Of a stretch of 64,000 nt of DNA, positions 2,490 through 60,934 are shown piece after piece. Made by a program: the position numbers and the translations under genes. The DNA is from Streptomyces violaceusniger Tu 4113 (lineage in GTDB: Bacteria > Actinomycetota > Actinomycetes > Streptomycetales > Streptomycetaceae). The notes beneath the pieces are model-generated. The model saw nothing but the letters and a program-made list of their open reading frames with translations, ran no database searches and was not told the DNA's origin. The stretch spans positions 682,001-746,000 of the forward strand of contig NC_015957.1 of assembly GCF_000147815.2 (NCBI RefSeq), written 5' to 3'. The first letter of the stretch is position 1. The number at the start of each line of letters is the position of its first letter.

Positions 2490-2940
2490 AGGTCTGCCGG
2501 ACGCGGATCGGGAAGGCCGCACCGGGTACGCGGATCGGGGTGGCCGCACCAGGCCCGCGGATCGGCGTGCCCCTTTCATGGGCGCCGCACTGGGACGCGG
2601 ACCGAGGATCGCTGCACCGGGTACGCGGCCCGGGGCAGCCGCCTAGCGGCGCACCGGGGGCGCTGCCCACCGGGGGCACCGGACAGGAGGGCACCGCACC
2701 GGGGCGTGGACCAGGGATGCCGCCCGGGGGCACTCCCGGGGGATGAGGCGCCGGGGATGCGGGTTGGGGAGGCCGTCCAGGGGCGCCGCACTGGTACGTG
2801 GACTGAGGGTCGCTGCACCGCGCCCGTGCGTACTGGGGCGTGGACCAGGGATGCCGCCCGGGGGCACCCCGGGGGCATGAGGCGCCGGGGATGCGGGCCC
2901 GGACGTGCACCGGGGATGCCGCCCCGGGCCCCGCCCGCTG
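2490..2940. repeat. Gene-free degenerate GC-rich repeat region
   Basis: No credible gene lies between 2390 and 2960. The stretch holds imperfect repeats of two kinds. One is a ~25-bp motif around ACGCGGATCGGG (about 2508-2570). The other is a 63-bp direct repeat at 2701-2763 and 2835-2897 that begins GGGGCGTGGACCAGGGATGC and differs only by a small shift in a C/G run. A partial third copy begins near 2911. Open frames through it are by-products of the GC content. Confidence 0.7.
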
Positions 2941-2959
2941 AGCGGGGTCCGGGAGGGCG

Positions 2960-5116
2960 CTATGCGCGCGACGTGGGGCGTGGGCGCCAGATCCATGGGG
3001 TGGCGTCCGGGGCCATGCCCACCACGCAGACGCCCTGGTGCCCGTCGTCCGCCAGCAGTGCCGGCGCGCCGACCGGGATCAGGCGGCCGGGGGAGCGCAG
3101 GGGCCTGGCGTCCGGGCCGGTGCCGTACTGGACCTGGACCTCCCCGCCCAGGTCGCGGCCGACCAGCAGCAGCGTCTTCGCCTCGCGTCGGCCGGAGGGT
3201 TCGGCCACGGTGTGCGCGGCGATCGCCCCGTAGCCCTCGAAGTGCCGCACCGTGAGCGAGGTGTCGTCGCCGTGGACGGCGGGCACGGTGGCCGCGGGGG
3301 TGCGGTAGACCAGTGTGAGCGAGCCGTCGGGGGCCACCGCGGCGCCCAGCGGATCCCCGCCGGGGCGCGGCAGACCGGTCGGCGGGCGCAGGGCGACCGG
3401 GCCACCGGCCCACTCCTGGGCCCAGTGGTGGACGGTGTCGCGGCCGGGGGCGAGGACATGGACCCGCTCCTCCGCGTCCAGCAGCGCGGTCATCCCGTCC
3501 TGGACCTCGGCGCCGCCGAGCCGCTGCCAGGGACTCCAGTGGCCGCTCCCGTCCCGTACTCGGGTGGCCAGGCCCTTGTCCGCGGTCCGTACGAAGAGAT
3601 GGACCCGGCCGTCGGGGGTGGCGACCGCCGCCGGGCAGCCGACCCGGCGGCCGTGTTCGGTGCTGGTCTCGGGGGTGCCGAGTCCGGTCCAGGCGCGGAA
3701 CGGGCCGTCCGGGCGGCGCTGTTCCAGCACCACGATCTCGCGCAGGCCGGCCGCGCCTTGGCCGCCCAGCGCAGCGAACCGCAGGGCGAACAGCACCTGC
3801 CGCCCCGCGCTGTCCCGCACCGCGGTGAGGGCCGGGGCGAGCGGTCCGCCGCCGAGCCCCAGCGGCGCACCGAACCGCCCGCTGCCGGGTGCCGTCTCGC
3901 GCCACCGCACGGCCTGGGCGCCGAGCACGCCGTACGCCACGAGCCGGCCCTGGGCGTCGGTGGTGGGGGCGGGCAGGGCGGTGGGGTAGCGGTAGTGGGT
4001 GGAGCGGATCCAGCCCTTACGGTTCCGCAGCGGGCGCACGCCGCCCTGGCCGTAGTCGCCGCAACCGGCCGCGTTGCCGCAGTCCCAGTCCGGGGCGCCG
4101 CCGTAGGACTTGATCACCCGCGCCTTCCGGGCGAGCACCGCGGGCGGCAGATTGTGCGGCCAGCGCTGGTTGTAGTAGCCGCGGAACGCGGTGGTGGTGA
4201 AGCGCGGGGCGTGCTTGTCCCGCTGGGCGGACGCGGCCACCCACTGGGCGATCGCCTTCCAGGTGAACAGTGCGACCGGGGTGTGGTCGCGGTGGTCCGA
4301 GCACCCCGGCTGATCGTTGTCCTTGGGGTGCAGCACGTCGTGCACCTGGAAGTCGGGGTCCGGGTCCAGCGTGTGGATCAGCGTGGGCCGATAGCGGTCC
4401 ATGATCTCGGCGAGCACGTCGACCAGCGTCTGATGGCCGTACGAACTCGGGTGCGGAACCGGGGACCCGGCGGCTCGGAGGGTGCTCATCACGGCGCCCG
4501 GGGTGCTCCACAGCGCGGGGATCCGTACGCCGCCCTCCGACAGCATCGCGATGTTGAGGAAGACCAGCCGGACCCTGCGGGCCCCGTTCGCGAGGGTGTT
4601 GGTCTCCGCGGTGACCCCGCCGGGCAGCCGCAGCGCCGACCGCTGCCAGGGCGCGAACTGGTTCAGCCCGATCATCCGCGCGTACGCCTGCCGCAGCCCC
4701 TGATGGCGGGAGGCGGAGTAGGCGGCCTTGTCGGCGGGCGGGATCGGCGTCCCCGCCTGGTGGTTGATCCCCCGGGCCTCACCGGCCGTGACGTACACGC
4801 ACACCACCGGGACGCCGGAGCGCAGCACCTGCTCGGCGTCCGGGTTCATGAAGTACAGATCGTCGTCGGGGTGCGCCATGACCTGCAGCAGCAGCGCCTG
4901 CTTGTCGCCCACCGTCGAGGTGAAGGGCTCCGCCGCCCCGGGGCCATCGGCCCGCGCGGGCCCGGCGGGCACGGATGCCGTGCCACGCGAGCCTCCACCC
5001 CCGCAACCGGCGACCCCGGCGACCCCGGCCGCTCCGGCCGCGGTGAGTGCCGCCAGCGCGGCCAGCGTCTGCCTGCGGGTGGTGCCCGTTCCCCGCACTG
5101 TCCATCGACTGTTCAA
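2960..5116 (-). CDS. PIG-L family deacetylase, Tat-type lipoprotein with C-terminal propeller-like domain
   Basis: 718 aa, probably an exported zinc-dependent N-deacetylase of the GlcNAc-PI/MshB (LmbE) family acting on an amino-sugar substrate. The N-terminus has a twin arginine (R14-R15), a hydrophobic stretch and a lipobox-like VAGC with Cys38, so the protein is likely anchored outside. The zinc motif AHPDDDLYF starts at residue 81; the distal ligand region is GCSDHRDH. After residue ~390 there is a repeat-rich region (e.g. GHWSPWQRLGG, LLLVGRDLGGEVQVQY) like the sugar-binding beta-propeller or tectonin domains of secreted hydrolases. The start is TTG at 5116, with AGGG upstream; GTG at 5098 is the alternative. 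The substrate is not determined. Confidence 0.85.
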   Translation of the reverse strand: MNSRWTVRGTGTTRRQTLAALAALTAAGAAGVAGVAGCGGGGSRGTASVPAGPARADGPGAAEPFTSTVGDKQALLLQVMAHPDDDLYFMNPDAEQVLRSGVPVVCVYVTAGEARGINHQAGTPIPPADKAAYSASRHQGLRQAYARMIGLNQFAPWQRSALRLPGGVTAETNTLANGARRVRLVFLNIAMLSEGGVRIPALWSTPGAVMSTLRAAGSPVPHPSSYGHQTLVDVLAEIMDRYRPTLIHTLDPDPDFQVHDVLHPKDNDQPGCSDHRDHTPVALFTWKAIAQWVAASAQRDKHAPRFTTTAFRGYYNQRWPHNLPPAVLARKARVIKSYGGAPDWDCGNAAGCGDYGQGGVRPLRNRKGWIRSTHYRYPTALPAPTTDAQGRLVAYGVLGAQAVRWRETAPGSGRFGAPLGLGGGPLAPALTAVRDSAGRQVLFALRFAALGGQGAAGLREIVVLEQRRPDGPFRAWTGLGTPETSTEHGRRVGCPAAVATPDGRVHLFVRTADKGLATRVRDGSGHWSPWQRLGGAEVQDGMTALLDAEERVHVLAPGRDTVHHWAQEWAGGPVALRPPTGLPRPGGDPLGAAVAPDGSLTLVYRTPAATVPAVHGDDTSLTVRHFEGYGAIAAHTVAEPSGRREAKTLLLVGRDLGGEVQVQYGTGPDARPLRSPGRLIPVGAPALLADDGHQGVCVVGMAPDATPWIWRPRPTSRA

Positions 5117-5329
5117 TTTGGTGACCCTGTCACTTCGGCAGCGCGTAGTCGCCGGCTGCTCCGAGTGAAAGGACGGGCGATGATCTTGACAGGTTGCCCT
5201 ATGGCCGGGAGGTATCGGTCACAGTCCGGACACATCGTCCTTCGCTACGAGGGCGCGAGGGCGCGAGGGCGCGAGGACGTGCGGGCGCACGGGCGCACGA
5301 GGGCGCCCATGACGATGGAGCCGGGTCGC

Positions 5330-6334
5330 TCAGTCGGAGATCAGCACCCCGAGCACCGCGAGCCAGCAGGCCGCCACCAGCACGGGCAGCAGCATCATGA
5401 TCGCGCCGGTCGGGGAGACCTTCAGATAGGCGGAGCCGGGGTCGTCGGTGCGGCGATTCACTATCCGCTCGCCACCGTGCCAGGCCATGTACTCCTCGAG
5501 CTCGATCACCGTCTCCTTGCGCGCCAGAAGGTACTGACGGCCGAAGCGCAGCATCAGCGAGAAGCCCAGCGATAACCCGATGCCGATGATCGCGATGATC
5601 ATCGCAAGCCCCTTGCCCAGGGTGCCTCCCGCGCCTTCCTTGCCGAGGCAGAAGGCGGTGGCGGCAGCGAGGCCCGCCGTGATGTAGAAGAAGTTGTTCA
5701 GCTTCTGCCAGTTGAGGTTGTCCTCGTGCTTGTAGAGGTCCACCGCGATCCCGTACTGCGCGTGCAGCATCGCCTCACGTGGTTTGCGCCACACCCACAC
5801 CACCCGGGGCAGCCCGTCCGGCGGGGTCAGCCGGGTCAGCTCCTGGAAGCCGAGCTTGTGGTGGAAGCGCGCGGACGCGTCGTTGGGCGGATCGTTGACC
5901 ACGGCGGCGATCACCGGGCTCTCGTGCCACTGGTCGAGGACGTGGTAGTAGAGCATCGAGGCGATCCCGCCCCGTGCCGCGTCCCGGGCCACGCAGATCT
6001 GCTTGATCACCAGGAAGCTGCCGAGCGCCGTCTTGATCCGGCGGTTCAGCCATTCGTCCGGCTCGACCCGGTCGGAGCTGTAGGCCAGCAGGAACGCCAG
6101 CACCTGCCCGCCCTTGACCGCCACATAGAAGTGCTCGGCGCTCTCCAGCCGGGCGCGGTAGTCGGCCTCGGTGTACGCCGAGACCAGGAAGCCGCCCTCC
6201 GTCGAGCCGCCCTGCACCGGGCCTCGGGCGCCGTCCGGCCCGTTCAGACTCCGTGACCTGGCGAGGCGCGCGATCTGCTCCACGTGCTCCTCGCCCGCCC
6301 GTAAGATCTCCACCCGCAGCGGCATACCGGCCAT
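5330..6334 (-). CDS. GNAT acetyltransferase fused to a C-terminal two-TM module
   Basis: 334 aa. The start is set at the ATG at 6334 because a G-rich SD (AGGGGGG) precedes it; an in-frame GTG/ATG farther upstream lacks one. Residues ~5-200 form a GNAT domain: AEHFYVAVKGGQVLAFLLAY, the acetyl-CoA loop ICVARDAARGGIASML, and FHHKLGFQEL. After a linker (LYKHEDNLNWQKLNNFF) come two hydrophobic helices (FYITAGLAAATAFCL and MIIAIIGIGLSLGFSLML), then a cytoplasmic stretch and a final TM segment (IMMLLPVLVAACWLAVLG). The LNWQK plus 2TM layout resembles SLATT/RipA-like 2TM membrane modules. The acetylated substrate is unknown. It is transcribed divergently from the S10 operon. Confidence 0.8.
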   Translation of the reverse strand: MAGMPLRVEILRAGEEHVEQIARLARSRSLNGPDGARGPVQGGSTEGGFLVSAYTEADYRARLESAEHFYVAVKGGQVLAFLLAYSSDRVEPDEWLNRRIKTALGSFLVIKQICVARDAARGGIASMLYYHVLDQWHESPVIAAVVNDPPNDASARFHHKLGFQELTRLTPPDGLPRVVWVWRKPREAMLHAQYGIAVDLYKHEDNLNWQKLNNFFYITAGLAAATAFCLGKEGAGGTLGKGLAMIIAIIGIGLSLGFSLMLRFGRQYLLARKETVIELEEYMAWHGGERIVNRRTDDPGSAYLKVSPTGAIMMLLPVLVAACWLAVLGVLISD

Positions 6335-6427
6335 TCCGATCCCCCCTCTTCTCGGCGCGCCGAAACTACCGTGGGCGGGATACGCCGCACCAGCATGCGA
6401 AGGGGCCACGGTAGAGCTGGCCGCGGG

Positions 6428-6456
6428 TTTGCGGGCTCACTCGTAGGGGGTATGCT
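6428..6456 (+). promoter_or_regulatory. Candidate promoter of the S10 ribosomal operon
   Basis: TTTGCG (6428-6433), a 17-bp spacer and TATGCT (6451-6456) make a plausible housekeeping-type promoter ~360 bp before rpsJ. A weaker alternative is TTGGCG (6471-6476) with CACACT (6496-6501). There is no gene between 6334 and 6815; the stretch holds this promoter and a long leader. Confidence 0.45.
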
Positions 6457-6578
6457 TCCCCGCTCCCTGATTGGCGTCGGCGGTGCCCGCTATGGCACAC
6501 TGACCAGGTTGCTCGGTTGAGTGCCGATGCTGCGCGCCTCTCGCCGGGAGGACTGGAAGCGAGTCCCACGGTACTCGT

Positions 6579-6596
6579 CGCCCCTGATCAGGGGCG
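6579..6596 (+). promoter_or_regulatory. 18-bp perfect palindrome in the rpsJ leader
   Basis: CGCCCCTGATCAGGGGCG is an exact palindrome. As RNA it forms a 7-bp stem with a GATC loop ~220 nt before rpsJ. S10 leaders often carry autoregulatory structures (L4 in E. coli), but no specific mechanism can be assigned here. Confidence 0.4.
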
Positions 6597-6814
6597 GAAG
6601 TACGGGAATCTTCCGGGAAGCGTCAGCGGGGCCCCAGCCAGGCGCCCGGTGGGTGACTTTCTCCCCCAGCAACCCCCTTCACCAGGGATCTCCGCATGGA
6701 GATCTATGAGAAGGACTGCGACACACCCGACCGCGTGGGTCGGAAGTGGGTGGAGAAGGACGCGCACGCCACCGGGTCCCAGAGCGTTACGAGAGACAGG
6801 ACTACGAAGTAGCC

Positions 6815-7123
6815 ATGGCGGGACAGAAGATCCGCATCCGGCTCAAGGCCTACGACCACGAGGTCATCGACTCCTCGGCGAAGAAGATCGTCGAGACGGT
6901 GACGCGCACTGGTGCGTCGGTCGCGGGCCCGGTGCCGCTGCCCACAGAGAAGAACGTGTACTGCGTCATCAAGTCGCCGCACAAGTACAAGGACGCGCGC
7001 GAGCACTTTGAGATGCGTACGCACAAGCGCCTCATCGACATCCTCGACCCCACGCCGAAGACCGTCGACTCGCTGATGCGTCTCGACCTGCCGGCGGGCG
7101 TCGACATCGAGATCAAGCTCTGA
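6815..7123 (+). CDS. rpsJ: 30S ribosomal protein S10
   Basis: 102 aa, full family length, beginning [19 protein letters not shown] and containing [12 protein letters not shown] and [14 protein letters not shown]10 sits in the 30S head and, as NusE, also joins antitermination complexes. It is the first gene of the S10 operon. The ATG at 6815 is chosen because the S10 consensus starts there; an in-frame upstream ATG at 6746 has no homology support. rplC follows 13 bp after the stop. Confidence 0.99.
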
Positions 7124-7136
7124 GGTGACGCGCGAG

Positions 7137-7781
7137 ATGGCTAAGCAGATCAAGGGCGTCCTGGGCGAGAAGCTCGGCATGACGCAGGTGTGGGACGAGA
7201 ACAACCGTGTCGTCCCGGTCACCGTCGTCAAGGCCGGTCCGTGCGTCGTGACCCAGGTCCGTACCGATGACGCGGACGGCTACAGCGCCGTCCAGATCGC
7301 CTTCGGCGAGATCGACCCGCGCAAGGTGAACAAGCCCCTCAAGGGCCACTTCGCCAAGGCCGATGTGACCCCGCGCCGCCACCTGGTGGAGCTGCGTACC
7401 ACCGACGCCGGTGAGTACACGCTCGGCCAGGAAGTCACGGCCGAGGTGTTCGAGTCCGGTGTCAGGGTCGACGTGACCGGCACCAGCAAGGGCAAGGGCA
7501 CCGCCGGTGTCATGAAGCGCCACGGCTTCGCCGGCCTCGGCGCCGGCCACGGCACCCAGCGCAAGCACCGCTCGCCGGGCTCCATCGGTGGCTGCGCCAC
7601 CCCGGGCCGCGTGTTCAAGGGCCTGCGCATGGCCGGCCGCATGGGCAATGAGCGGGTCACCACCCAGAACCTGACCGTCCACGCCGTTGACGCGGAGAAG
7701 GGTCTGCTCCTGATCAAGGGAGCGGTTCCTGGTCCGAACGGCGGCCTCGTCCTGGTCCGTACCGCGGCCAAGGGGGCCTGA
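7137..7781 (+). CDS. rplC: 50S ribosomal protein L3
   Basis: 214 aa starting [20 protein letters not shown]; it contains the L3 signature around [17 protein letters not shown] and the long loop region [15 protein letters not shown] that reaches toward the peptidyl transferase centre. The ATG at 7137 is preferred to the in-frame GTG at 7125, because the AGGTG at 7123-7127 is then a correctly spaced SD and the family starts at MAKQ. Second gene of the S10 operon. Confidence 0.99.
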
Positions 7782-8816: not shown

Positions 8817-9653
8817 ATGGGTATCCGCAAGTACAAGCCGACGACCCCGGGCCGTCGTGGCTCCAGCGTCGCCGACTTCGTCGAGATCACGCGGTCCACG
8901 CCGGAGAAGTCGCTGGTCCGCCCGCTGCACAGCAAGGGTGGTCGTAACAACGCCGGCCGCATCACGGTCCGCCACCAGGGTGGCGGTCACAAGCGTGCGT
9001 ACCGCGTGATCGACTTCCGCCGTCACGACAAGGACGGCGTCCCGGCGAAGGTCGCACACATCGAATACGACCCCAACCGCACCGCGCGCATCGCGCTGCT
9101 GCACTACGCCGACGGCGAGAAGCGCTACGTCCTCGCGCCGCGCGGCCTGAAGCAGGGCGACCGGATCGAGAACGGCCCCGGCGCCGACATCAAGCCCGGT
9201 AACAACCTCTCGCTGCGCAACATCCCGGTTGGTACCACGCTCCACGCCATCGAGCTGCGGCCCGGCGGCGGCGCGAAGTTCGCCCGCTCCGCGGGTGCCT
9301 CCGTGCAGCTGCTGGCGAAGGAGGGCTCCATGGCCCACCTCCGCATGCCGTCCGGTGAGATCCGCCTGGTCGACGTCCGCTGCCGCGCCACCGTCGGCGA
9401 GGTCGGCAACGCCGAGCAGTCGAACATCAACTGGGGCAAGGCCGGCCGCATGCGCTGGAAGGGCGTCCGCCCGACCGTTCGTGGTGTGGTCATGAACCCC
9501 GTCGACCACCCGCACGGTGGTGGTGAGGGCAAGACCTCCGGTGGTCGCCACCCGGTCTCGCCGTGGGGTCAGAAGGAGGGCCGTACGCGCTCGCCGAAGA
9601 AGGCCAGCAACAAGTACATCGTCCGCCGCCGCAAGACGAACAAGAAGCGCTAG
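8817..9653 (+). CDS. rplB: 50S ribosomal protein L2
   Basis: 278 aa, full length. It starts [14 protein letters not shown] and carries the conserved C-terminal segment [19 protein letters not shown], whose His is close to the peptidyl transferase centre and the tRNA-binding sites. A GAGGA SD lies 7 nt upstream. Fifth gene of the S10 operon, 47 bp after rplW. Confidence 0.99.
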
Positions 9654-9665
9654 GAGCGGGTTTAG

Positions 9666-9947
9666 ATGCCGCGCAGTCTCAAGAAGGGGCCCTTCGTCGA
9701 CGACCACCTGAGCAAGAAGGTGGATGTCCAGAACGAAGCCGGCACCAAGAACGTCATCAAGACCTGGTCCCGCCGCTCGATGATCGTCCCGGCCATGCTC
9801 GGCCACACGATCGCGGTGCACGACGGCCGCAAGCACGTCCCGGTGTTCGTCACCGAGTCGATGGTCGGCCACAAGCTCGGCGAATTCGCGCCGACCCGCA
9901 CCTTCCGCGGCCACGAGAAGGACGACCGTAAGTCGCGTCGTCGCTGA
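9666..9947 (+). CDS. rpsS: 30S ribosomal protein S19
   Basis: 93 aa, beginning [15 protein letters not shown], with the S19 signature [16 protein letters not shown]19 binds 16S rRNA in the 30S head with S13. SD GGAG is 9 nt upstream. Position between rplB and rplV is the universal one. Confidence 0.99.
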
Positions 9948-9987
9948 TCGGCGGAAAAGACTCATGACAGACACCGAAGGGACAACC

Positions 9988-10334
9988 ATGGAAGCCAGGG
10001 CCCAGGCGCGGTACATCCGCGTCACGCCCATGAAGGCCCGCCGCGTGGTGGACCTCATCCGTGGCATGAGTGCCACGGAGGCTCAGGCGGTCCTGCGTTT
10101 CGCCCCGCAGGCCGCGAGCGTGCCGGTCGGCAAGGTGCTGGACAGCGCCATTGCCAACGCCGCGCACAACTACGACCACACCGACGCCGACAGCCTCGTC
10201 ATCTCCGAGGCGTACGTCGACGAGGGCCCGACCCTGAAGCGGTTCCGTCCGCGTGCCCAGGGCCGCGCCTACCGGATCCGCAAGCGGACCAGCCACATCA
10301 CCGTGGTCGTCAGCAGCAAGGAAGGAACCCGGTA

Positions 10335-10335
<1 letters not shown>
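9988..10335 (+). CDS. rplV: 50S ribosomal protein L22
   Basis: 115 aa from [20 protein letters not shown], with the tunnel beta-hairpin and the [19 protein letters not shown] signature. L22 lines the exit tunnel. The ATG at 9988 (SD AAGGGA) fits the usual family start; an in-frame ATG at 9964 would add MTDTEGTT and cannot be excluded. The stop overlaps rpsC as TAATG. Confidence 0.97.
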
Positions 10336-11162
<827 letters not shown>

Positions 11163-24868: not shown

Positions 24869-25747
24869 GTGAGTACCAGCGAGGCCGCTGTGCGAGAGCG
24901 CCTGACCAGGGCTCTGCAGGAGCGCGACGAGGAAATCGCCGATCGCTGGGTCGAGCTGCAGATGGAGCAGGCCCTGCTTGACACCGACATCGGCGAGGCC
25001 GAACTCCGCGAGGAGGCCGACGCCTTGATCGAGGCGCTGGTTCCCGGCCTGCAGAGCGGTGTGCCGGTGGACCGGGTGGTGACCACCACCCCGGGGCTGC
25101 ACGAGGCCGTGGTGGGGCTGTCGATGCGCCGGGCGCGGGCGGGGGCCACGCCGACGGCGACCTCGCTCGCGGTGCTCGCGCTCAAGGAGGCGCTGCTCAA
25201 GGCGGTGCAGCGGGACACCCGGGACGCCGAGGAGCTGTTCGCCTCGGCCGTCTTCATGAACCGGCTGCTGGATGTGGCCGGGGCGCTGTCCTTCGAGACG
25301 TATGTGGAGGGCCGGGAGGAGATCATCCGCCGGCAGAGCCAGCAGTTGATGGAGCAGTCGACACCGGTGGTGCGGCTGTGGCGGCAGGTGCTGGCGGTGC
25401 CGCTGATCGGCACGCTGGACACCGCCCGGACCCAGGTGGTGATGGAGAATCTGCTCCAGGCCATCCAGGACCATGAGGCGCTGGTCGCGATCATCGACAT
25501 CACGGGTGTGCCGACGGTGGACACCGCCGTCGCCCAGCATCTGATGCAGACCGTGAACGCGGTGCGGCTGATGGGCGCGGACTGCGTGATCAGCGGGGTC
25601 CGCCCCTCGATCGCCCAGACCATCGCCCAGCTCGGCATCGATCTGTCCACCATCCTCACGCGGGCGACGCTGGCCGACGCGCTGGCCGCCGCGATCAAGC
25701 TGATCGACGGGCCCGGTCCCGACGGTGACGAAGGAGATGGTCGGTGA
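24869..25747 (+). CDS. rsbR: RsbR-like stressosome protein (STAS domain)
   Basis: 292 aa. Residues ~1-160 are a helical, globin-like sensory region, the part that varies among RsbR paralogues and receives signals. Residues ~172-285 are a STAS domain. VDT (T219, in DITGVPTVDTAVAQHL) and AQT (T251, in GVRPSIAQTIAQLGIDLS) match the two RsbT-phosphorylated Thr regions of Bacillus RsbR. It starts at GTG with a GAAGGGA SD. The stop overlaps the rsbS start (GTGA). By homology RsbR and RsbS build the stressosome that holds RsbT. The ligand sensed is unknown. Confidence 0.92.
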   Translation: MSTSEAAVRERLTRALQERDEEIADRWVELQMEQALLDTDIGEAELREEADALIEALVPGLQSGVPVDRVVTTTPGLHEAVVGLSMRRARAGATPTATSLAVLALKEALLKAVQRDTRDAEELFASAVFMNRLLDVAGALSFETYVEGREEIIRRQSQQLMEQSTPVVRLWRQVLAVPLIGTLDTARTQVVMENLLQAIQDHEALVAIIDITGVPTVDTAVAQHLMQTVNAVRLMGADCVISGVRPSIAQTIAQLGIDLSTILTRATLADALAAAIKLIDGPGPDGDEGDGR

Positions 25748-26154
25748 ACGGTCATCGCTCACCCGGCGTTCCGATTCTGCGACTGGGAGATGTCCTGGTC
25801 ACCGGCCTGCTCAATGAGCTCGACGACCGGACCGCCATCGCCTTCACCGAGGAGCTCACCGAGCGGATCTCGGCCGAGGGCGCCCGTGGGGTGCTCATCG
25901 ACATCTCCCGGCTGGAGGTCATCGACTCCTTCGTGGCCCGGACGCTGATGGAGCTGACCACGGTGGCCCGGCTGCTGGGGGCCCGGGTGATCGTGGCCGG
26001 GATGCGACCGCCGGTGGCGATCACCCTGGTCGAGCTGGGGATCGAACTGGTCGGTGTGGAGACCGCACTCAATCCGGAGCAGGGGATGGCCGCGCTGGGG
26101 TGGCGTCAGGCCCCGCAGCCCCTGGAAGGGGCCCGACGTGGCACTGCCCGGTGA
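25744..26154 (+). CDS. rsbS: RsbS-like STAS antagonist
   Basis: 136 aa, a single STAS domain matching RsbS. The phosphorylation site is S62 in DISRLEVIDSFVARTL, followed by GARVIVAGMRPPVAITLVEL. RsbS binds and restrains the kinase RsbT until that Ser is phosphorylated. It starts at GTG, overlapping the rsbR stop by 4 bp. The C-terminal ~15 residues (PQPLEGARRGTAR) lie beyond the domain because the frame overlaps rsbT by 17 bp. Confidence 0.93.
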   Translation: MNGHRSPGVPILRLGDVLVTGLLNELDDRTAIAFTEELTERISAEGARGVLIDISRLEVIDSFVARTLMELTTVARLLGARVIVAGMRPPVAITLVELGIELVGVETALNPEQGMAALGWRQAPQPLEGARRGTAR

Positions 26155-26617
26155 ATCCACCCTCGCCTCCCACGGGCCCAAGCGGCCCGCGCGGGCCGAG
26201 AGCCGGCGTATGCCCGCGCCGGCCACGTATCCGGTGCGCACCGAGGAGGACCTGCTGACGGTCCGCCATGCGGTGCGCGCGGCCACCGTCGAGGTGGGCT
26301 TCGGCCTGGTGGACCAGACCCGTGTGGTCACGGCCGCCAGCGAGCTCGCCCGTAACGCCTATGTCCACGGGGGCGGCGGCACGGTCACCCTCGACTATCC
26401 GCGCGAGCCCTCCGGGCGGCGGGGGCTGCGGCTGACCGTCAAGGACGAGGGGCCGGGCATCGCGGACCTCGAGGCGGCGCTCACCGACGGGTTCACCACC
26501 GGCTCGGGCCTGGGGCACGGGCTGGGCGGCGCCCGGCGGCTGATGGACGAGTTCACCGTGCGCACCGGCCCGGGCGAGGGCACCGTCGTGGTCGTCATCC
26601 GCTGGGCGGCCCGGTGA
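26138..26617 (+). CDS. rsbT: RsbT-like serine/threonine kinase (switch protein)
   Basis: 159 aa, HATPase/GHKL fold of the RsbT/RsbW/SpoIIAB type. N-box E69 and N73 in ASELARNAYVHGGG, G1 box D103 in KDEGPGI, and G2 GLGHGLGGARRLMDEF are intact, so it should bind ATP. It starts at GTG 26138 with a GGAAGGGG SD, giving a ~25-residue non-conserved N-terminus. It is placed directly after rsbS as in Bacillus, which favours RsbT over a generic anti-sigma factor. Its stop overlaps the next start by 4 bp. Confidence 0.92.
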   Translation: MALPGESTLASHGPKRPARAESRRMPAPATYPVRTEEDLLTVRHAVRAATVEVGFGLVDQTRVVTAASELARNAYVHGGGGTVTLDYPREPSGRRGLRLTVKDEGPGIADLEAALTDGFTTGSGLGHGLGGARRLMDEFTVRTGPGEGTVVVVIRWAAR

Positions 26618-27633
26618 CCCGTATCTTCACGGTGCCCACCGCCCAGGTGCGCGTCGATCACCACAGCGCCGTGCATCTGGCCGCCGAGACGGCGCGTGCG
26701 GTGGCCCGGGAGTGCGAGCTGCCGGGGGCGCTGCCCGATCAGGCGGCGGTGATCGCCTCCGAGCTGGCGACCAACCTGGACAAGCACGCCAGCGACGGCA
26801 CGCTCTACGTCCAGCCGCTGCCGCTGGGCCACGGGGTGGAGATCCTCGCCGCCGACCGCGGCCCCGGTATGCACGACCCCGAGCGCTGTCTGGCCGACGG
26901 CTACACCACCTCCGGCACGCTGGGGGTCGGGCTCGGCGCCGTCAGAAGGATGGCGACCCACTTCACCATGCGCAGCGCCGACGGCACCGACGTGGGCACC
27001 TGGGCCTGCGCCCGCCTGACCGCGCCGGGCGAGCAGCGGCCGGAGTGGCAGGGGGTGGGCGCGATCTGTCTGCCCGCCGAAGGGGAGGAGGGCTGTGGCG
27101 ACGCCCGCGGGATCGTCGACACGGACGCCGCCCGCACCGCGGTCGTCCTCGACGGCCTCGGCCACGGCCGGGCCGCCGAGGAGGCGGCCCAGGCGGCGCT
27201 GCGGACCTTCCACACCGACCCCGACCGTCCGCTGCCGGACGTGCTCACCCGGATGAACCGGGCCCTGCGGCACACCCGCGGCGCCGCCGTGGGGCTGCTG
27301 CGGCTGCACCACGATCGCGCCGACTACTGCGGCATCGGCAACATCCGGGCCCTCGCCCTGACCCCGGGCGGGGTCGAGCACCGGCTGACCGGACAGCCGG
27401 GGATCGTCGGCTGGGGCATGCCCACCCCGCGCGTCCACGGCTTCCCGCTGTCCCAGGGCGCCACGGCGGTGCTGCACAGCGACGGTATAGACGCCCGCTG
27501 GGCGCTGGACCCGCCCCCGTCCGTGCTCCGTCTTCCGCCGTCCCTGCTGTCCGCCGCACTCGCCCATGGCCATCGCCGCGTCCGCGACGACGCCACGGTG
27601 CTCGCGGCCAGGTCACCCTTAAGGCTTCCATGA
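26614..27633 (+). CDS. Anti-sigma-like ATPase fused to an RsbX-type PP2C phosphatase
   Basis: 339 aa with two domains. Residues ~1-133 form a GHKL ATPase (N-box E50/N54 in ASELATNLDKHAS, G1 D81 in AADRGPGM, G2 LGVGLGAVRRM). Residues ~145-339 form a short PP2C/SpoIIE-like phosphatase resembling RsbX: metal Asp D180 (VVLDGLGHG), CGIGNIRAL and D290 (LHSDGID). In Bacillus RsbX dephosphorylates RsbR/RsbS and resets the stressosome; here it is joined to a kinase-like ATPase. It starts at GTG, overlapping rsbT by 4 bp, and overlaps the next gene by 4 bp. Whether the ATPase half phosphorylates an anti-anti-sigma factor is unknown. Confidence 0.9.
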   Translation: MTRIFTVPTAQVRVDHHSAVHLAAETARAVARECELPGALPDQAAVIASELATNLDKHASDGTLYVQPLPLGHGVEILAADRGPGMHDPERCLADGYTTSGTLGVGLGAVRRMATHFTMRSADGTDVGTWACARLTAPGEQRPEWQGVGAICLPAEGEEGCGDARGIVDTDAARTAVVLDGLGHGRAAEEAAQAALRTFHTDPDRPLPDVLTRMNRALRHTRGAAVGLLRLHHDRADYCGIGNIRALALTPGGVEHRLTGQPGIVGWGMPTPRVHGFPLSQGATAVLHSDGIDARWALDPPPSVLRLPPSLLSAALAHGHRRVRDDATVLAARSPLRLP

Positions 27634-28835
27634 CGACGAGGAACCTCACCTGCGCCACGACGGCCCGGCTCAGCCGGGCCGTTCGGGCGCTGGCCCGGGA
27701 GCACGCCCTGGACCCGGAGGTCCGGGGGCGCCTTGTGCTGTCCGCCGCCGAGGCCGCCGGGACGGCGCTGCGCGCCGGGCGGGAAACCGTCCTGGAGTGG
27801 GCGTACGACCCGGACGACGGGCTGCTCACGGTGGTGCTGCGGACGCCGGGCGATACGGGCCCGGCGGCGGAGCTGCCGATGGCCCCCGAGGCGGTGACCC
27901 AGGACGAGGTGGTCTGGCGCCTTCCGGCGGGCCCGCCGGCGGACGCCGCCGAGGAGGCCCTCGGCGAGGAGGCCCTCGCCGCGGAGGAGTTGCGCGCCGT
28001 GCTGGCCGCCGCCGACGCGCTCACCGCCGAGCACCGCCGCCTCAAGGACGAACTCGAGGAGACCAACAGCGGGGTGCTCGCGCTCTACGTCCAGCTCGAC
28101 GAGCGGGACAAGCAGTTGCGCACCGCGCACGGCCAGACCCTGCGGGAGCTGGAGGACGCGCTGCGCCCGCCGCTCATCGAGGCCGACGGCCTCGAACTCG
28201 CCGTGCACTACGAACCGGCCGGCACCGACGCGCCGACCGGCGGGGATCTGTACGACTGGTTCGTGCTGCCCGACGGCACCGTCCACATCACCATCGTGGA
28301 CGCGCTGGGCCATGGGGTGACCAGTACGCGCAGCGCGCTCAACGTCACCCACGCGGTGCGCACCCTGGCGCTGGAGGGCCACCGCCTCCAGTCGATCGTG
28401 GCCCGCACCGACGAGATCCTGCACCCCTTCGACCGGGCCGTGATGGCCACCGTGCTGCTCGCCCGGATCCATCCGGCCACCGGTGAGCTGTGGCTGGCCA
28501 ACGGGAGCCATCCGCCCGCGCTGCTGCTGCGCCGCGACGGATCGGCCCGCTATCTGGAGGCCCGGGGGCGCGGGATCGGCTTTCCGCTGCCCGGGAGCGA
28601 GACACCGCTGACCGAGCGGCTGGCCCCCGGGGACCTCCTCCTGCTCTACACCGACGGGCTCACCGAGAGCCGCCGGGACCCGATCGAGGGCGAGAGGCGC
28701 CTGATCGAGGCCGCGCACAAGCATCTGCAGAGCCCGATCGAGGAGGTCCCCGGCGCCATCGCGGAGGATATGCACACGGTGATCCTGCATCCGGATGACA
28801 CCCTCGCGCTGGCGGTGCGGCTCACCGGTCAGTGA
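27630..28835 (+). CDS. RsbU/SpoIIE-type PP2C phosphatase with degenerate ATPase-like N-terminus
   Basis: 401 aa. Residues ~1-80 resemble the RsbT fold, but the N-box position reads SAAEAAGTALRAG and lacks the Asn, so ATP binding is doubtful. Residues ~108-180 form a Glu/Leu-rich coiled coil. Residues ~180-401 form the SpoIIE/RsbU phosphatase (PF07228): D206 (TGGDLYDW), D224 (IVDALGHGV), and the LLLYTDGLTESR motif. In the paradigm RsbT activates RsbU, which dephosphorylates an anti-anti-sigma factor. It starts at ATG 27630 in ATGA overlap with the previous stop. It is the last gene of the module, and its stop overlaps a convergent gene by 7 bp. Confidence 0.9.
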   Translation: MTTRNLTCATTARLSRAVRALAREHALDPEVRGRLVLSAAEAAGTALRAGRETVLEWAYDPDDGLLTVVLRTPGDTGPAAELPMAPEAVTQDEVVWRLPAGPPADAAEEALGEEALAAEELRAVLAAADALTAEHRRLKDELEETNSGVLALYVQLDERDKQLRTAHGQTLRELEDALRPPLIEADGLELAVHYEPAGTDAPTGGDLYDWFVLPDGTVHITIVDALGHGVTSTRSALNVTHAVRTLALEGHRLQSIVARTDEILHPFDRAVMATVLLARIHPATGELWLANGSHPPALLLRRDGSARYLEARGRGIGFPLPGSETPLTERLAPGDLLLLYTDGLTESRRDPIEGERRLIEAAHKHLQSPIEEVPGAIAEDMHTVILHPDDTLALAVRLTGQ

Positions 28836-29365
28836 TCGGCGGCCGGGCCGAGGCGCTGCCCCGGGATACGGCTCTGCTGAAGATCCCGCTGACGGGGGAC
28901 CGGGGGCGGGAGCGGGCGCTCGTCGTGCGGCTGTGCGCGCACGAGTTGCTCGAACAGGGGCCGCGCGGCGACCAGCGCCTCCCGCATCCGCTCGGTGGCG
29001 GCTTCGGCGGTCTGGCCCTCGGGTACCTGCGCCGCCATGGCGTGCAGCCGGCGGTAGCCGTCGATCTCCCCGGGGTGACGGATGGACAGCGCGTCCATCC
29101 GCTTGTCGTCGGACTCGGCCGGATAGCCGCGGTCGACGGCCAAGGCGCCCAGCAGCCGGTCGGCTTCGCGCAGCGCCCAGCCGGGAGAGTCGACGAATCG
29201 CTCCTGCACTCCCGCCCACCGCGCCGCGTACTGCTCCCTGGCTTCCGAGGGCAGGCTTCGGACCGGCAGTTCGCCCTTGCGGCCCTGCCGGACCGAGGGG
29301 GCGATCACAAGGCCGGCCATGGCGGCCAGGGCCGCCACCAGGATGATGAGCGTGACAGTTGACAT
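28829..29365 (-). CDS. Membrane-anchored hypothetical protein
   Basis: 178 aa. One N-terminal TM helix (residues ~3-22, TLIILVAALAAMAGLVIA) is followed by a soluble helical domain (REQYAARWAGVQERFVDSPG, LREADRLLGALAVDRGYP) of the kind found in secreted or membrane-anchored actinobacterial proteins. The C-terminal 25 residues are Pro/Arg/Gln-rich. The start is ATG 29365 with a GGAAGG SD; a GTG at 29410 is a weaker option. It converges on the stress module and overlaps its last gene by 7 bp, which may allow antisense interference. No function is assigned. Confidence 0.8.
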   Translation of the reverse strand: MSTVTLIILVAALAAMAGLVIAPSVRQGRKGELPVRSLPSEAREQYAARWAGVQERFVDSPGWALREADRLLGALAVDRGYPAESDDKRMDALSIRHPGEIDGYRRLHAMAAQVPEGQTAEAATERMREALVAARPLFEQLVRAQPHDERPLPPPVPRQRDLQQSRIPGQRLGPAADH

Positions 29366-29463
29366 CGTTGTGCCTTCCGCAGAGTTTTCCTCGCTCGAGG
29401 CTGGTATCACCGAGTGTTACCGGTGATCTCCGCGGCAAACACCGCACCCATGACTCACGTCTC

Positions 29464-60367: not shown

Positions 60368-60463
60368 AGGTGACGGCCTCTACCGTAGGTGTCGTTTCCG
60401 CTACTGCGCGTTGATCGCCGTAACGGTACGCGCGCTGTCGGCCCCCTCACAGGGAGTTGCCCC

Positions 60464-60934
60464 ATGGATTCCGATCACGAGTCCGACGACCGTCCCCCAC
60501 GCCGCCCGCCCGTTCCCTCGAGGGACCCGTACGTCTACACCCTCCAGAGCAGCCGCCACGCGACCTCCCCCAAGGTCTGCCGGGACTTCGTGGCCTGCGT
60601 TCTGAACTCCGTGGGGCAGGAGGAACTGGTCGACACGGCGACGCTGTGCACCTCGGAGCTGGCGACCAACGCGTTTCTGCACGCCGAGGGCGACTCCCTG
60701 ATGCTGCGTGTGGTGATCGAGCCGCCGCGCTTCCGCGTCCTGGTCTACGACGCCTCCGCCGAACTCCCCACCGGGGCACGCCTGCCCGAGGGCGATCGTC
60801 TCCGCGGCCGCGGCCTCGGACTGGTGGCGGCCCTGGCCGACGCGTGGGGGACGGCGGAGGGGGACACGGTCGGGACGTACGCGAAGGGGGTCTGGTTCGA
60901 ACTCGCGGGCAAGGCGGAGGGCGACGAGGATTAA
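60464..60934 (+). CDS. Anti-sigma-factor-like ATP-binding protein
   Basis: 156 aa, HATPase/RsbW-like fold: VDTATLCTSELATNAFLHA (N-box), FRVLVYDASAELP (the G1 Asp-Gly motif is altered to DASAEL), RGRGLGLVAALADAWGT (G2). The first ~35 residues are Pro/Arg-rich. It is the third member of the XRE-DUF397-ATPase set often seen in Streptomyces. SD AGGGAG; start ATG 60464. The changed G1 motif makes kinase activity less certain than binding. Confidence 0.88.
   Translation: MDSDHESDDRPPRRPPVPSRDPYVYTLQSSRHATSPKVCRDFVACVLNSVGQEELVDTATLCTSELATNAFLHAEGDSLMLRVVIEPPRFRVLVYDASAELPTGARLPEGDRLRGRGLGLVAALADAWGTAEGDTVGTYAKGVWFELAGKAEGDED

What the first reader, a model, noticed from the sequence alone, without database searches (positions are those of the whole stretch)
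24869..28835. Five-gene stressosome-type module with a kinase-like/RsbX fusion and a degenerate-ATPase phosphatase
Five genes overlap by 4-17 bp each: RsbR-like, RsbS, RsbT, then a GHKL ATPase fused to an RsbX-type PP2C domain, then an RsbU/SpoIIE phosphatase whose N-terminus resembles RsbT but lacks the N-box Asn. In the Bacillus system RsbX is a separate short protein and RsbU has a different N-terminus. The fusion could place a partner kinase and the reset phosphatase in one protein. The degenerate ATPase could be a dedicated docking surface for RsbT. No sigma factor or RsbV/RsbW lies nearby, so the output is unknown.
Basis: partly seen in the sequence, partly recalled or inferred. Interest (0 to 1): 0.75.

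Follow-up and report, generated by a model that had tools for sequence, protein, structure and literature searches.

The report
Stressosome operon with swappable-output helix
This five-gene Streptomyces operon encodes a bacterial stress-sensing complex of a type found far beyond Bacillus, and its output enzyme carries a short conserved helix that also occurs in quite different enzymes placed behind the same genes, so the helix may be the plug through which the sensor switches its outputs.

Summary
In detail: RsbR-, RsbS- and RsbT-like genes, then a GHKL-RsbX fusion (TX), then a SpoIIE-type phosphatase (U) whose N-terminus is a GHKL-like fold without ATP-binding motifs. The fusion is not unusual: R-S-T-TX also occurs in Deinococcus, proteobacterial and one haloarchaeal plasmid. 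The fifth gene is an exchangeable output (PP2C, GAF-PP2C, HisKA hybrid kinase, PAS-HisKA_3 kinase), and most versions share a coiled-coil signature, ELxETNxGVxALYxxL or a close variant. It tracks TX: the same 10 of 296 Actinomycetota genomes have both; in 101 Streptomyces 49 have each, 48 both; 23 of 23 plasmid records hit by the window's helix carry TX. Modules with separate RsbX lack it, and six of their nine neighbouring SpoIIE genes have RsbU_N instead. The GHKL-like head is intact in few, eroded in most, absent in some. I propose that the helix, more than the degenerate ATPase, receives the stressosome signal; this is inferred, not shown. Against it: Paraburkholderia, Salipiger and Phaeobacter fifth genes lack the motif, and co-occurrence may reflect shared descent. 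Literature could not be searched, because the paper tools failed.

The parts
24869..25747 (+). RsbR-like co-antagonist: RsbRD_N + STAS (292 aa)
   Evidence: RsbRD_N 1.6e-13, STAS 4.4e-15; VDT motif in 39 of 39 loci
25744..26154 (+). RsbS-like single STAS protein (136 aa)
   Evidence: STAS 2.3e-11; [VI]DSF at the presumed phospho-serine in 37 of 39 loci (site recalled from Bacillus)
26138..26617 (+). RsbT-like GHKL kinase (159 aa, GTG start)
   Evidence: HATPase_c_2 6.3e-12; SE[LI][AV]RNA and D.GPGI in 39 of 39 loci; PDB SpoIIAB E 9e-13
26614..27633 (+). TX: GHKL domain (aa 19-127) fused to RsbX-type PP2C (aa 176-333)
   Evidence: A2 invariants E50, N54, D81, G83, G85, D163, D180, D290 in 29 rows; PDB 3zt9 E 1.4e-33 and RsbX 3w40 E 1e-22
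27630..28835 (+). U: output phosphatase, 401 aa
   Evidence: SpoIIE 1.5e-34; GGD.YD, DA[LV]GHG, YTDGLTE and DDT[LV]A each in 40 of 40 loci
27630..27929 (+). U aa 1-100: GHKL-like fold without N-box, lid helix or G boxes
   Evidence: models (E3-8 H11-24 H29-48 E53-60 E65-71 E93-99); RsbW/SpoIIAB kinases top the fold lists; mean identity to 31 aligned relatives 48%
27966..28160 (+). U aa 113-177: single long helix, presumed coiled coil, running into the PP2C domain
28050..28097 (+). U aa 141-156: signature helix ELEETNSGVLALYVQL
   Evidence: 40 of 40 loci; 19-row alignment A5 across phyla; specificity
28185..28829 (+). U aa 186-400: SpoIIE/RsbU-type PP2C domain, metal-binding motifs intact

Best explanation
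A complete stressosome operon of a non-Bacillus type (R-S-T-TX-output). R and S form the STAS scaffold and T is its kinase. On stress T phosphorylates R and S and is released (inferred by analogy with Bacillus). TX resets the scaffold: its PP2C half is an RsbX, and its GHKL half, still carrying ATP-binding residues, probably tethers it to the STAS surface or to T. U is the output. Its PP2C domain is probably held inactive until a GHKL protein of the module, most likely free T, engages the conserved helix ELxETNxGVxALYxxL, and the rigidified dimeric coiled coil switches on the phosphatase. The GHKL-like head of U no longer binds ATP and serves as an accessory dimerisation or docking cap. U would dephosphorylate an RsbV-like anti-anti-sigma encoded elsewhere and so free a SigB-family sigma factor. 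Shown here: the anatomy, the conservation, the helix's association with TX modules and the swapping of output domains. Inferred: who binds the helix, that it forms a dimeric coiled coil, activation through it, and the sigma output.
For: Helix and fused TX go together: 10 of 296 Actinomycetota genomes have the helix, the same 10 that have a one-ORF TX. In 101 Streptomyces the helix is in 49 and TX in 49, 48 shared; the helix-only genome has TX cut by a contig end and the TX-only genome has a weak helix (E 3e-4). 48 of 51 helix places lie 77-660 bp downstream of TX. The window's own 39 residues hit 23 plasmid records at E<=1, all TX-bearing. The helix is kept before SpoIIE, GAF-SpoIIE, HisKA(-REC) and PAS-HisKA_3 outputs; a TX tree needs 4 changes of the PP2C-output label, 3 forced by well supported branches. 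Within U the motif is the most conserved part measured (88% v 79% for PP2C and 48% for the GHKL-like head). Free-RsbX modules lack it, and 6 of their 9 next-door SpoIIE genes have RsbU_N; 0 of 16 helix proteins scanned have RsbU_N. Sigma link: L055 R-S-T-TX-U-ATPase-SigBFG sigma, and a SigBFG gene near 3 more of 30 loci.
Against: No binding data. Helix and TX fusion may co-occur only because both descend from one ancestral module. Paraburkholderia (L064), Salipiger (L129) and Phaeobacter (L130) have R-S-T-TX and a GHKL-headed kinase without the helix. The plasmid test is one-way: 23 of the 105 TX-matching records were hit (58 of the rest are Phaeobacter; the Streptomyces records read have variant helices; Vibrio and Listeria records were not looked at). 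Four TX places have no helix next to them (L134, L142-L144). L058 has U with only a remnant of TX beside it. Three of nine SpoIIE genes beside free RsbX (L107-L109) show neither RsbU_N nor the helix. Four loci with a nearby SigBFG gene is thin, and in the other 26 none was found by a clustering that did not scan every gene. Counts are not corrected for relatedness. Rows of A5 were picked with a motif search, so part of its conservation is built in.
Confidence: 0.5

Rival explanations
1. One reading: the degenerate GHKL head of U is the dedicated docking surface for RsbT (GHKL-GHKL pairing), and the helix is only a spacer.
For: The fold is kept without an N-box in 32 aligned sequences, with invariant R19, R34, L66 and W96; helix 1, helix 2 and the first strands remain while the lid region is gone. 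GHKL heads are the constant feature in the three records without the helix (L064, L129, L130).
Against: The head is the least conserved folded part of U (48%) and is not found in helix-bearing outputs of Xanthomonas, Variovorax, Halobaculum, Streptomyces L136-L138, or in the U orthologue of L042, which starts about 20 residues before the helix.
Confidence: 0.2
2. The partner of the helix is TX's GHKL domain, not free T, so TX both resets the scaffold and gates the output.
For: The helix tracks fused TX, not R-S-T as such: 13 actinobacterial genomes with R-S-T and separate RsbX have no helix.
Against: The fusion and the helix may simply share ancestry; L058 keeps U beside a TX remnant without a PP2C match, although a second module sits elsewhere in that genome (L141).
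Confidence: 0.2
3. The motif is a structural coiled-coil segment kept by descent from one ancestral output gene, without a binding role.
For: A long helix is predicted; tandem copies 18 residues apart occur in L066, L097 and L100, as a coiled-coil spacer would allow.
Against: A spacer need not keep T, N, G and A at fixed sites; seven of 39 columns are identical in 19 diverse rows (rows picked with a looser motif), and it outlives changes of both neighbouring domains.
Confidence: 0.25
4. An ordinary Bacillus-like RsbRST-RsbU/RsbX module with unusual domain borders.
For: Gene order R-S-T then phosphatases; RsbX-like C-domain.
Against: No RsbU_N in U; no SigB-type sigma or further STAS_2 gene in the window; RsbX is fused to GHKL.
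Confidence: 0.05

Closest known systems
Bacillus RsbRST stressosome with RsbU and RsbX (recalled)
   Same: R-S-T core, RsbX-type reset phosphatase, SpoIIE-type PP2C output
   Different: RsbX is fused behind a GHKL domain; U has a GHKL-like head and signature helix instead of RsbU_N; no linked RsbV/RsbW/SigB found in the window
Stressosome phosphatase of PDB 3zt9 (title seen; source organism Moorella recalled)
   Same: closest solved relative of TX's PP2C half
   Different: 193-residue chain, PP2C only; the output there is recalled to be a cyclase
R-S-T-TX-kinase modules on plasmids of Deinococcus, Sphingomonas, Xanthomonas, Variovorax and Halobaculum (TX named 'ATP-binding SpoIIE family protein phosphatase', 'SpoIIE family protein phosphatase', 'anti-sigma regulatory factor' or 'ATP-binding protein' in the records)
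   Same: same first four genes in the same order, same helix (a variant in Halobaculum) in the fifth product
   Different: fifth gene is a histidine kinase, not a PP2C phosphatase
Streptomyces goshikiensis / S. fungicidicus plasmid modules (L063, L065)
   Same: R-S-T-TX then an eroded GHKL head, helix and SpoIIE
   Different: separate branches of the TX tree, L065 with a GAF domain
RsbW/SpoIIAB anti-sigma kinases
   Same: fold of U residues 1-101
   Different: no N-box, no lid helix, so no ATP site expected

Membership tests
RsbRST stressosome core | adjacent RsbR (STAS with own N-domain), RsbS (single STAS), RsbT (GHKL) | tested here: met
RsbRST stressosome core | phospho-acceptor sites on RsbS and RsbR (sites recalled) | tested here: met
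   motif only: [VI]DSF 37 of 39, VDT 39 of 39, GTLD 37 of 39
RsbRST stressosome core | assembles into the megadalton complex | not testable with these tools
   needs purified proteins or cryo-EM
RsbX | PP2C domain closest to RsbX | tested here: met
   PDB profile search: 3zt9 1.4e-33, 3w40 RsbX 1e-22, next 1e-5
RsbX | stand-alone short protein | tested here: not met
   339 aa with HATPase_c_2 in the same ORF
RsbU | SpoIIE-type PP2C with metal-binding motifs | tested here: met
RsbU | RsbU_N (PF08673) N-terminal domain | tested here: not met
   no match at E<=0.1 for U; 0 of 16 helix proteins scanned (cut-offs 0.001 to 10)
GHKL kinase (RsbT/RsbW) for U head | GHKL fold | tested here: met
   ATP-lid part missing
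GHKL kinase (RsbT/RsbW) for U head | N-box Asn and G boxes | tested here: not met
   N-box 0 of 40; alignment A1
SigB partner-switching operon | linked RsbV, RsbW and SigB-type sigma | tested here: not met
   no SigBFG or further STAS_2 gene in the window; small ATPase + sigma follow U in L055 only; sigma near 4 of 30 loci

The most novel reading that the evidence does not exclude
The ELxETNxGVxALYxxL helix is a portable receiver: the stressosome's freed switch protein clamps this coiled coil, so any enzyme grafted behind it (PP2C phosphatase, HisKA hybrid kinase, HisKA_3 kinase) becomes a stressosome output, across Actinomycetota, Deinococcota, Pseudomonadota and a haloarchaeon.
Probability: 0.4. 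Interest if true: 0.8.

Novelty: new variant of a known kind. Interest (0 to 1): 0.6.

Why it matters
How stressosomes in organisms without a linked SigB pass on their signal is, to my knowledge (recalled), an open question. A 16-residue signature that marks the output gene of TX-type modules gives a way to find outputs by sequence and a small target for binding and mutation tests. It also shows output enzymes being swapped behind a constant sensor. Possibly it finds unlinked outputs too: in genome G010 a lone U lies 4.3 Mb from an R-S-T-TX set, though that TX is of another branch of the tree than the TX usually found with U, so the two need not work together.

Tried and rejected
Single-domain TX: rejected by two Pfam domains and matches to two separate kinds of PDB protein. 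Unrelated N-terminus of U: rejected; the first fold search could not test it because the PP2C domain filled the list. A rare Streptomyces fusion: rejected, TX is in 49 of 101 Streptomyces and in several phyla. Search for a sigma, RsbV or RsbW output in the window: SigBFG, STAS_2 and HATPase_c_2 only; none near. Neighbourhood survey for a constant sixth gene: none; commonest gene families were a SpoIIE phosphatase (11 of 30 loci), one whose L033 member is MarR (8), one whose L055 member is a small ATPase (6) and SigBFG sigma (4), by a home-made gene caller, naming one or a few members per family, so misses are likely. Four R-S-T-TX places without the helix beside them were looked at; in the two whose downstream ORFs I read (L134, L143) no output-type gene was recognised by eye. 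Limits of the counts: one search scored at most 7 candidates per genome, at most 25 and at most 21, so misses are possible. Rows dropped: second tandem helix copies and T-only hits (including the one that makes one search's own tally 50) were left out before counting; A1 holds the window and 31 of 40 U loci (L001, L004, L005, L007, L009, L010, L042, L044, L057 left out, mostly near-copies, L042 as headless); A2, A3 and A5 are also selections made by me, A5 with a motif search.
Full report
What is there. The window lies in an 11.1 Mb genome (G000:C3:682001-746000) that by its closest named relatives is a Streptomyces of the S. hygroscopicus/iranensis/antioxidans group. The five genes are R 24869-25747, S 25744-26154, T 26138-26617, TX 26614-27633 and U 27630-28835, with overlaps of 4, 17, 4 and 4 bp. 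Pfam gives RsbRD_N+STAS, STAS, HATPase_c_2, HATPase_c_2+SpoIIE, and SpoIIE with a sub-threshold HATPase_c_2 at E 0.0042.

Catalytic state. T keeps N-box and G1 box in 39 of 39 loci. In a 29-row alignment TX keeps invariant E50, N54, D81, G83, G85 in the GHKL part and D163, D180, D290 in the PP2C part, and its PP2C half is closest to the stressosome phosphatase 3zt9 (E 1.4e-33) and RsbX 3w40 (E 1e-22). U keeps its PP2C motifs in 40 of 40 loci and has the N-box in none.

How common. In 199 Streptomyces genomes 31 have a U orthologue at E <= 1.3e-129 (next best place 9e-48, a broken second copy). Of these 31, 29 keep R-S-T-TX-U in order; L040 has U alone and L058 has only a TX remnant; L047 has about 1.5 kb between R and S. 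In the window's relatives the cassette sits behind truA; in the other loci truA was not found beside it, so it seems to move.

Outside this subgroup. Plasmid records show R-S-T-TX followed by a kinase-like gene in Sphingomonas (L061), D. radiodurans MP1 (L062), Deinococcus KNUC1210 (L127), Paraburkholderia (L064), Xanthomonas (L126), Variovorax (L128), Salipiger (L129), Phaeobacter (L130), Caballeronia (L125) and the archaeon Halobaculum (L131) (kinase domains by Pfam for L061, L062, L064, L125, L126, by record name or sequence for the rest). S. goshikiensis and S. fungicidicus plasmids have a SpoIIE gene fifth. Thus the first four genes are constant and the fifth is the output.

The signature helix. 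Fifth proteins with otherwise different domains share ELxETNxGVxALYxxL or a variant (for example HQTNQGVLALH in L065 and L098, TETNEGMVALT in Halobaculum). In U it lies in one predicted 65-residue helix that runs into the PP2C domain; across 31 aligned relatives its identity is 88%, against 79% for PP2C and 48% for the head. Searching 7.3 Gb of plasmids with the Sphingomonas helix found 22 records (E<=0.01) and with the window's own 39 residues 23 records (E<=1); all are among the records with a TX match, and in the nine records of different strains or species whose coordinates I compared by eye the helix lies 55-920 bp behind the TX match. The reverse is not so: 82 of the 105 TX-matching records were not hit, 58 of them Phaeobacter. 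In 296 Actinomycetota genomes the 39-column profile rings in 10, the same 10 that have TX in one ORF. In 101 Streptomyces the helix is in 49 genomes and TX in 49, 48 shared (raw Fisher p 1e-26, not corrected for kinship); of the two misfits, G050 has the TX cut by the contig end and G047 has a weak helix match (3e-4). 48 of 51 helix places follow TX within 77-660 bp; 5 of 53 TX places (one of them G047) lack an adjacent helix at the cut-off.

Contrast. Thirteen of the 296 Actinomycetota genomes were seen to have RsbX separate from T, and none of these has the helix. Of nine such loci with a SpoIIE gene next to RsbX, six carry RsbU_N (L106, L110, L112, L113, L115, L116) and three do not (L107-L109). 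Of 16 helix proteins scanned by Pfam, none has RsbU_N. RsbU_N and the helix thus look like alternative input elements.

What varies. Of 58 helix-bearing fifth proteins in my loci, a motif search found an intact N-box in 3 (Sphingomonas and two Deinococcus); the others have an eroded, unrecognised or missing head. Missing: L126, L128 and L131, the Streptomyces L136-L138, where the helix lies 111-159 bp behind the TX match, and L042, a direct U orthologue of 300 aa that starts about 20 residues before the helix. Outputs: SpoIIE, GAF-SpoIIE, HisKA-HATPase with or without REC, PAS-HisKA_3-HATPase. A TX tree of 62 rows needs 4 changes of the PP2C label, 3 forced by well supported branches, although the root and long branches (Halobaculum, Variovorax, Salipiger, Xanthomonas) are unsure.

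Against the reading. L064, L129 and L130 lack the helix although TX and a GHKL head are present. So the helix is not required in every TX module; in those the head may do the work.

Likely target. G000 has 38 SpoIIE places and eight SigB/F/G-type sigma genes over the cut-off, none of the latter in the window. In L055 the order is R-S-T-TX-U, a 145-aa HATPase_c_2 protein, then a SigBFG sigma (272 bits, cut-off 234), on one strand; in L033, L038 and L041 such a sigma gene is within about 2.1 kb. This points to SigB-type partner switching but is thin.

Mechanism. See Best explanation. Anatomy, conservation, co-occurrence and output exchange are shown; binding partner, coiled-coil activation and sigma output are inferred. 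No paper could be read (searches failed), so the mechanism rests on recalled knowledge of Bacillus and the novelty of the helix in print is unchecked.

Noticed in passing
L131 (Halobaculum halophilum plasmid) 2847-7245: A haloarchaeal plasmid carries R-S-T-TX, a fifth gene with a variant of the helix and a response regulator: a stressosome module in an archaeon.
   Followed up: partly
L066, L097, L100, L141: The signature helix is duplicated in tandem (18-residue spacing where read, in L066, L097 and L100; two profile hits in L141) in these histidine-kinase outputs.
   Followed up: partly
L042 (genome G023) 5983-6885: A direct U orthologue without the GHKL-like head: the helix begins about 20 residues after the start codon, right behind TX.
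   Followed up: partly
L058 5171-5959 and L141: One genome (G058) has only a weak GHKL match of TX beside U, and a second module elsewhere.
   Followed up: partly
L040 and L134 (genome G010): U stands alone, 4.3 Mb away from an R-S-T-TX set that has no recognised output gene beside it; that TX belongs to another branch of the TX tree.
   Followed up: partly
L047, about 9159-10617: About 1.5 kb of unexamined sequence separates R from S in this otherwise conserved module.
   Followed up: no
G006:C8:898943-899854: A second, broken copy of U (pieces, one in-frame TGA).
   Followed up: no
L032, L033, L035, L038, L041, L042, L048, L053, L056, L057, L060: A SpoIIE-family gene of about 400 aa lies within about 2.5 kb of the module in 11 of 30 loci; a MarR-like gene in 8 of 30.
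   Followed up: partly
window 28829-29410 (-): A 193-aa ORF without a Pfam match runs tail to tail into the end of U; a relative follows U in the five truA-linked loci compared.
   Followed up: no
window 60389-60934 (+): A separate small HATPase_c_2 protein, 32 kb from the module.
   Followed up: no
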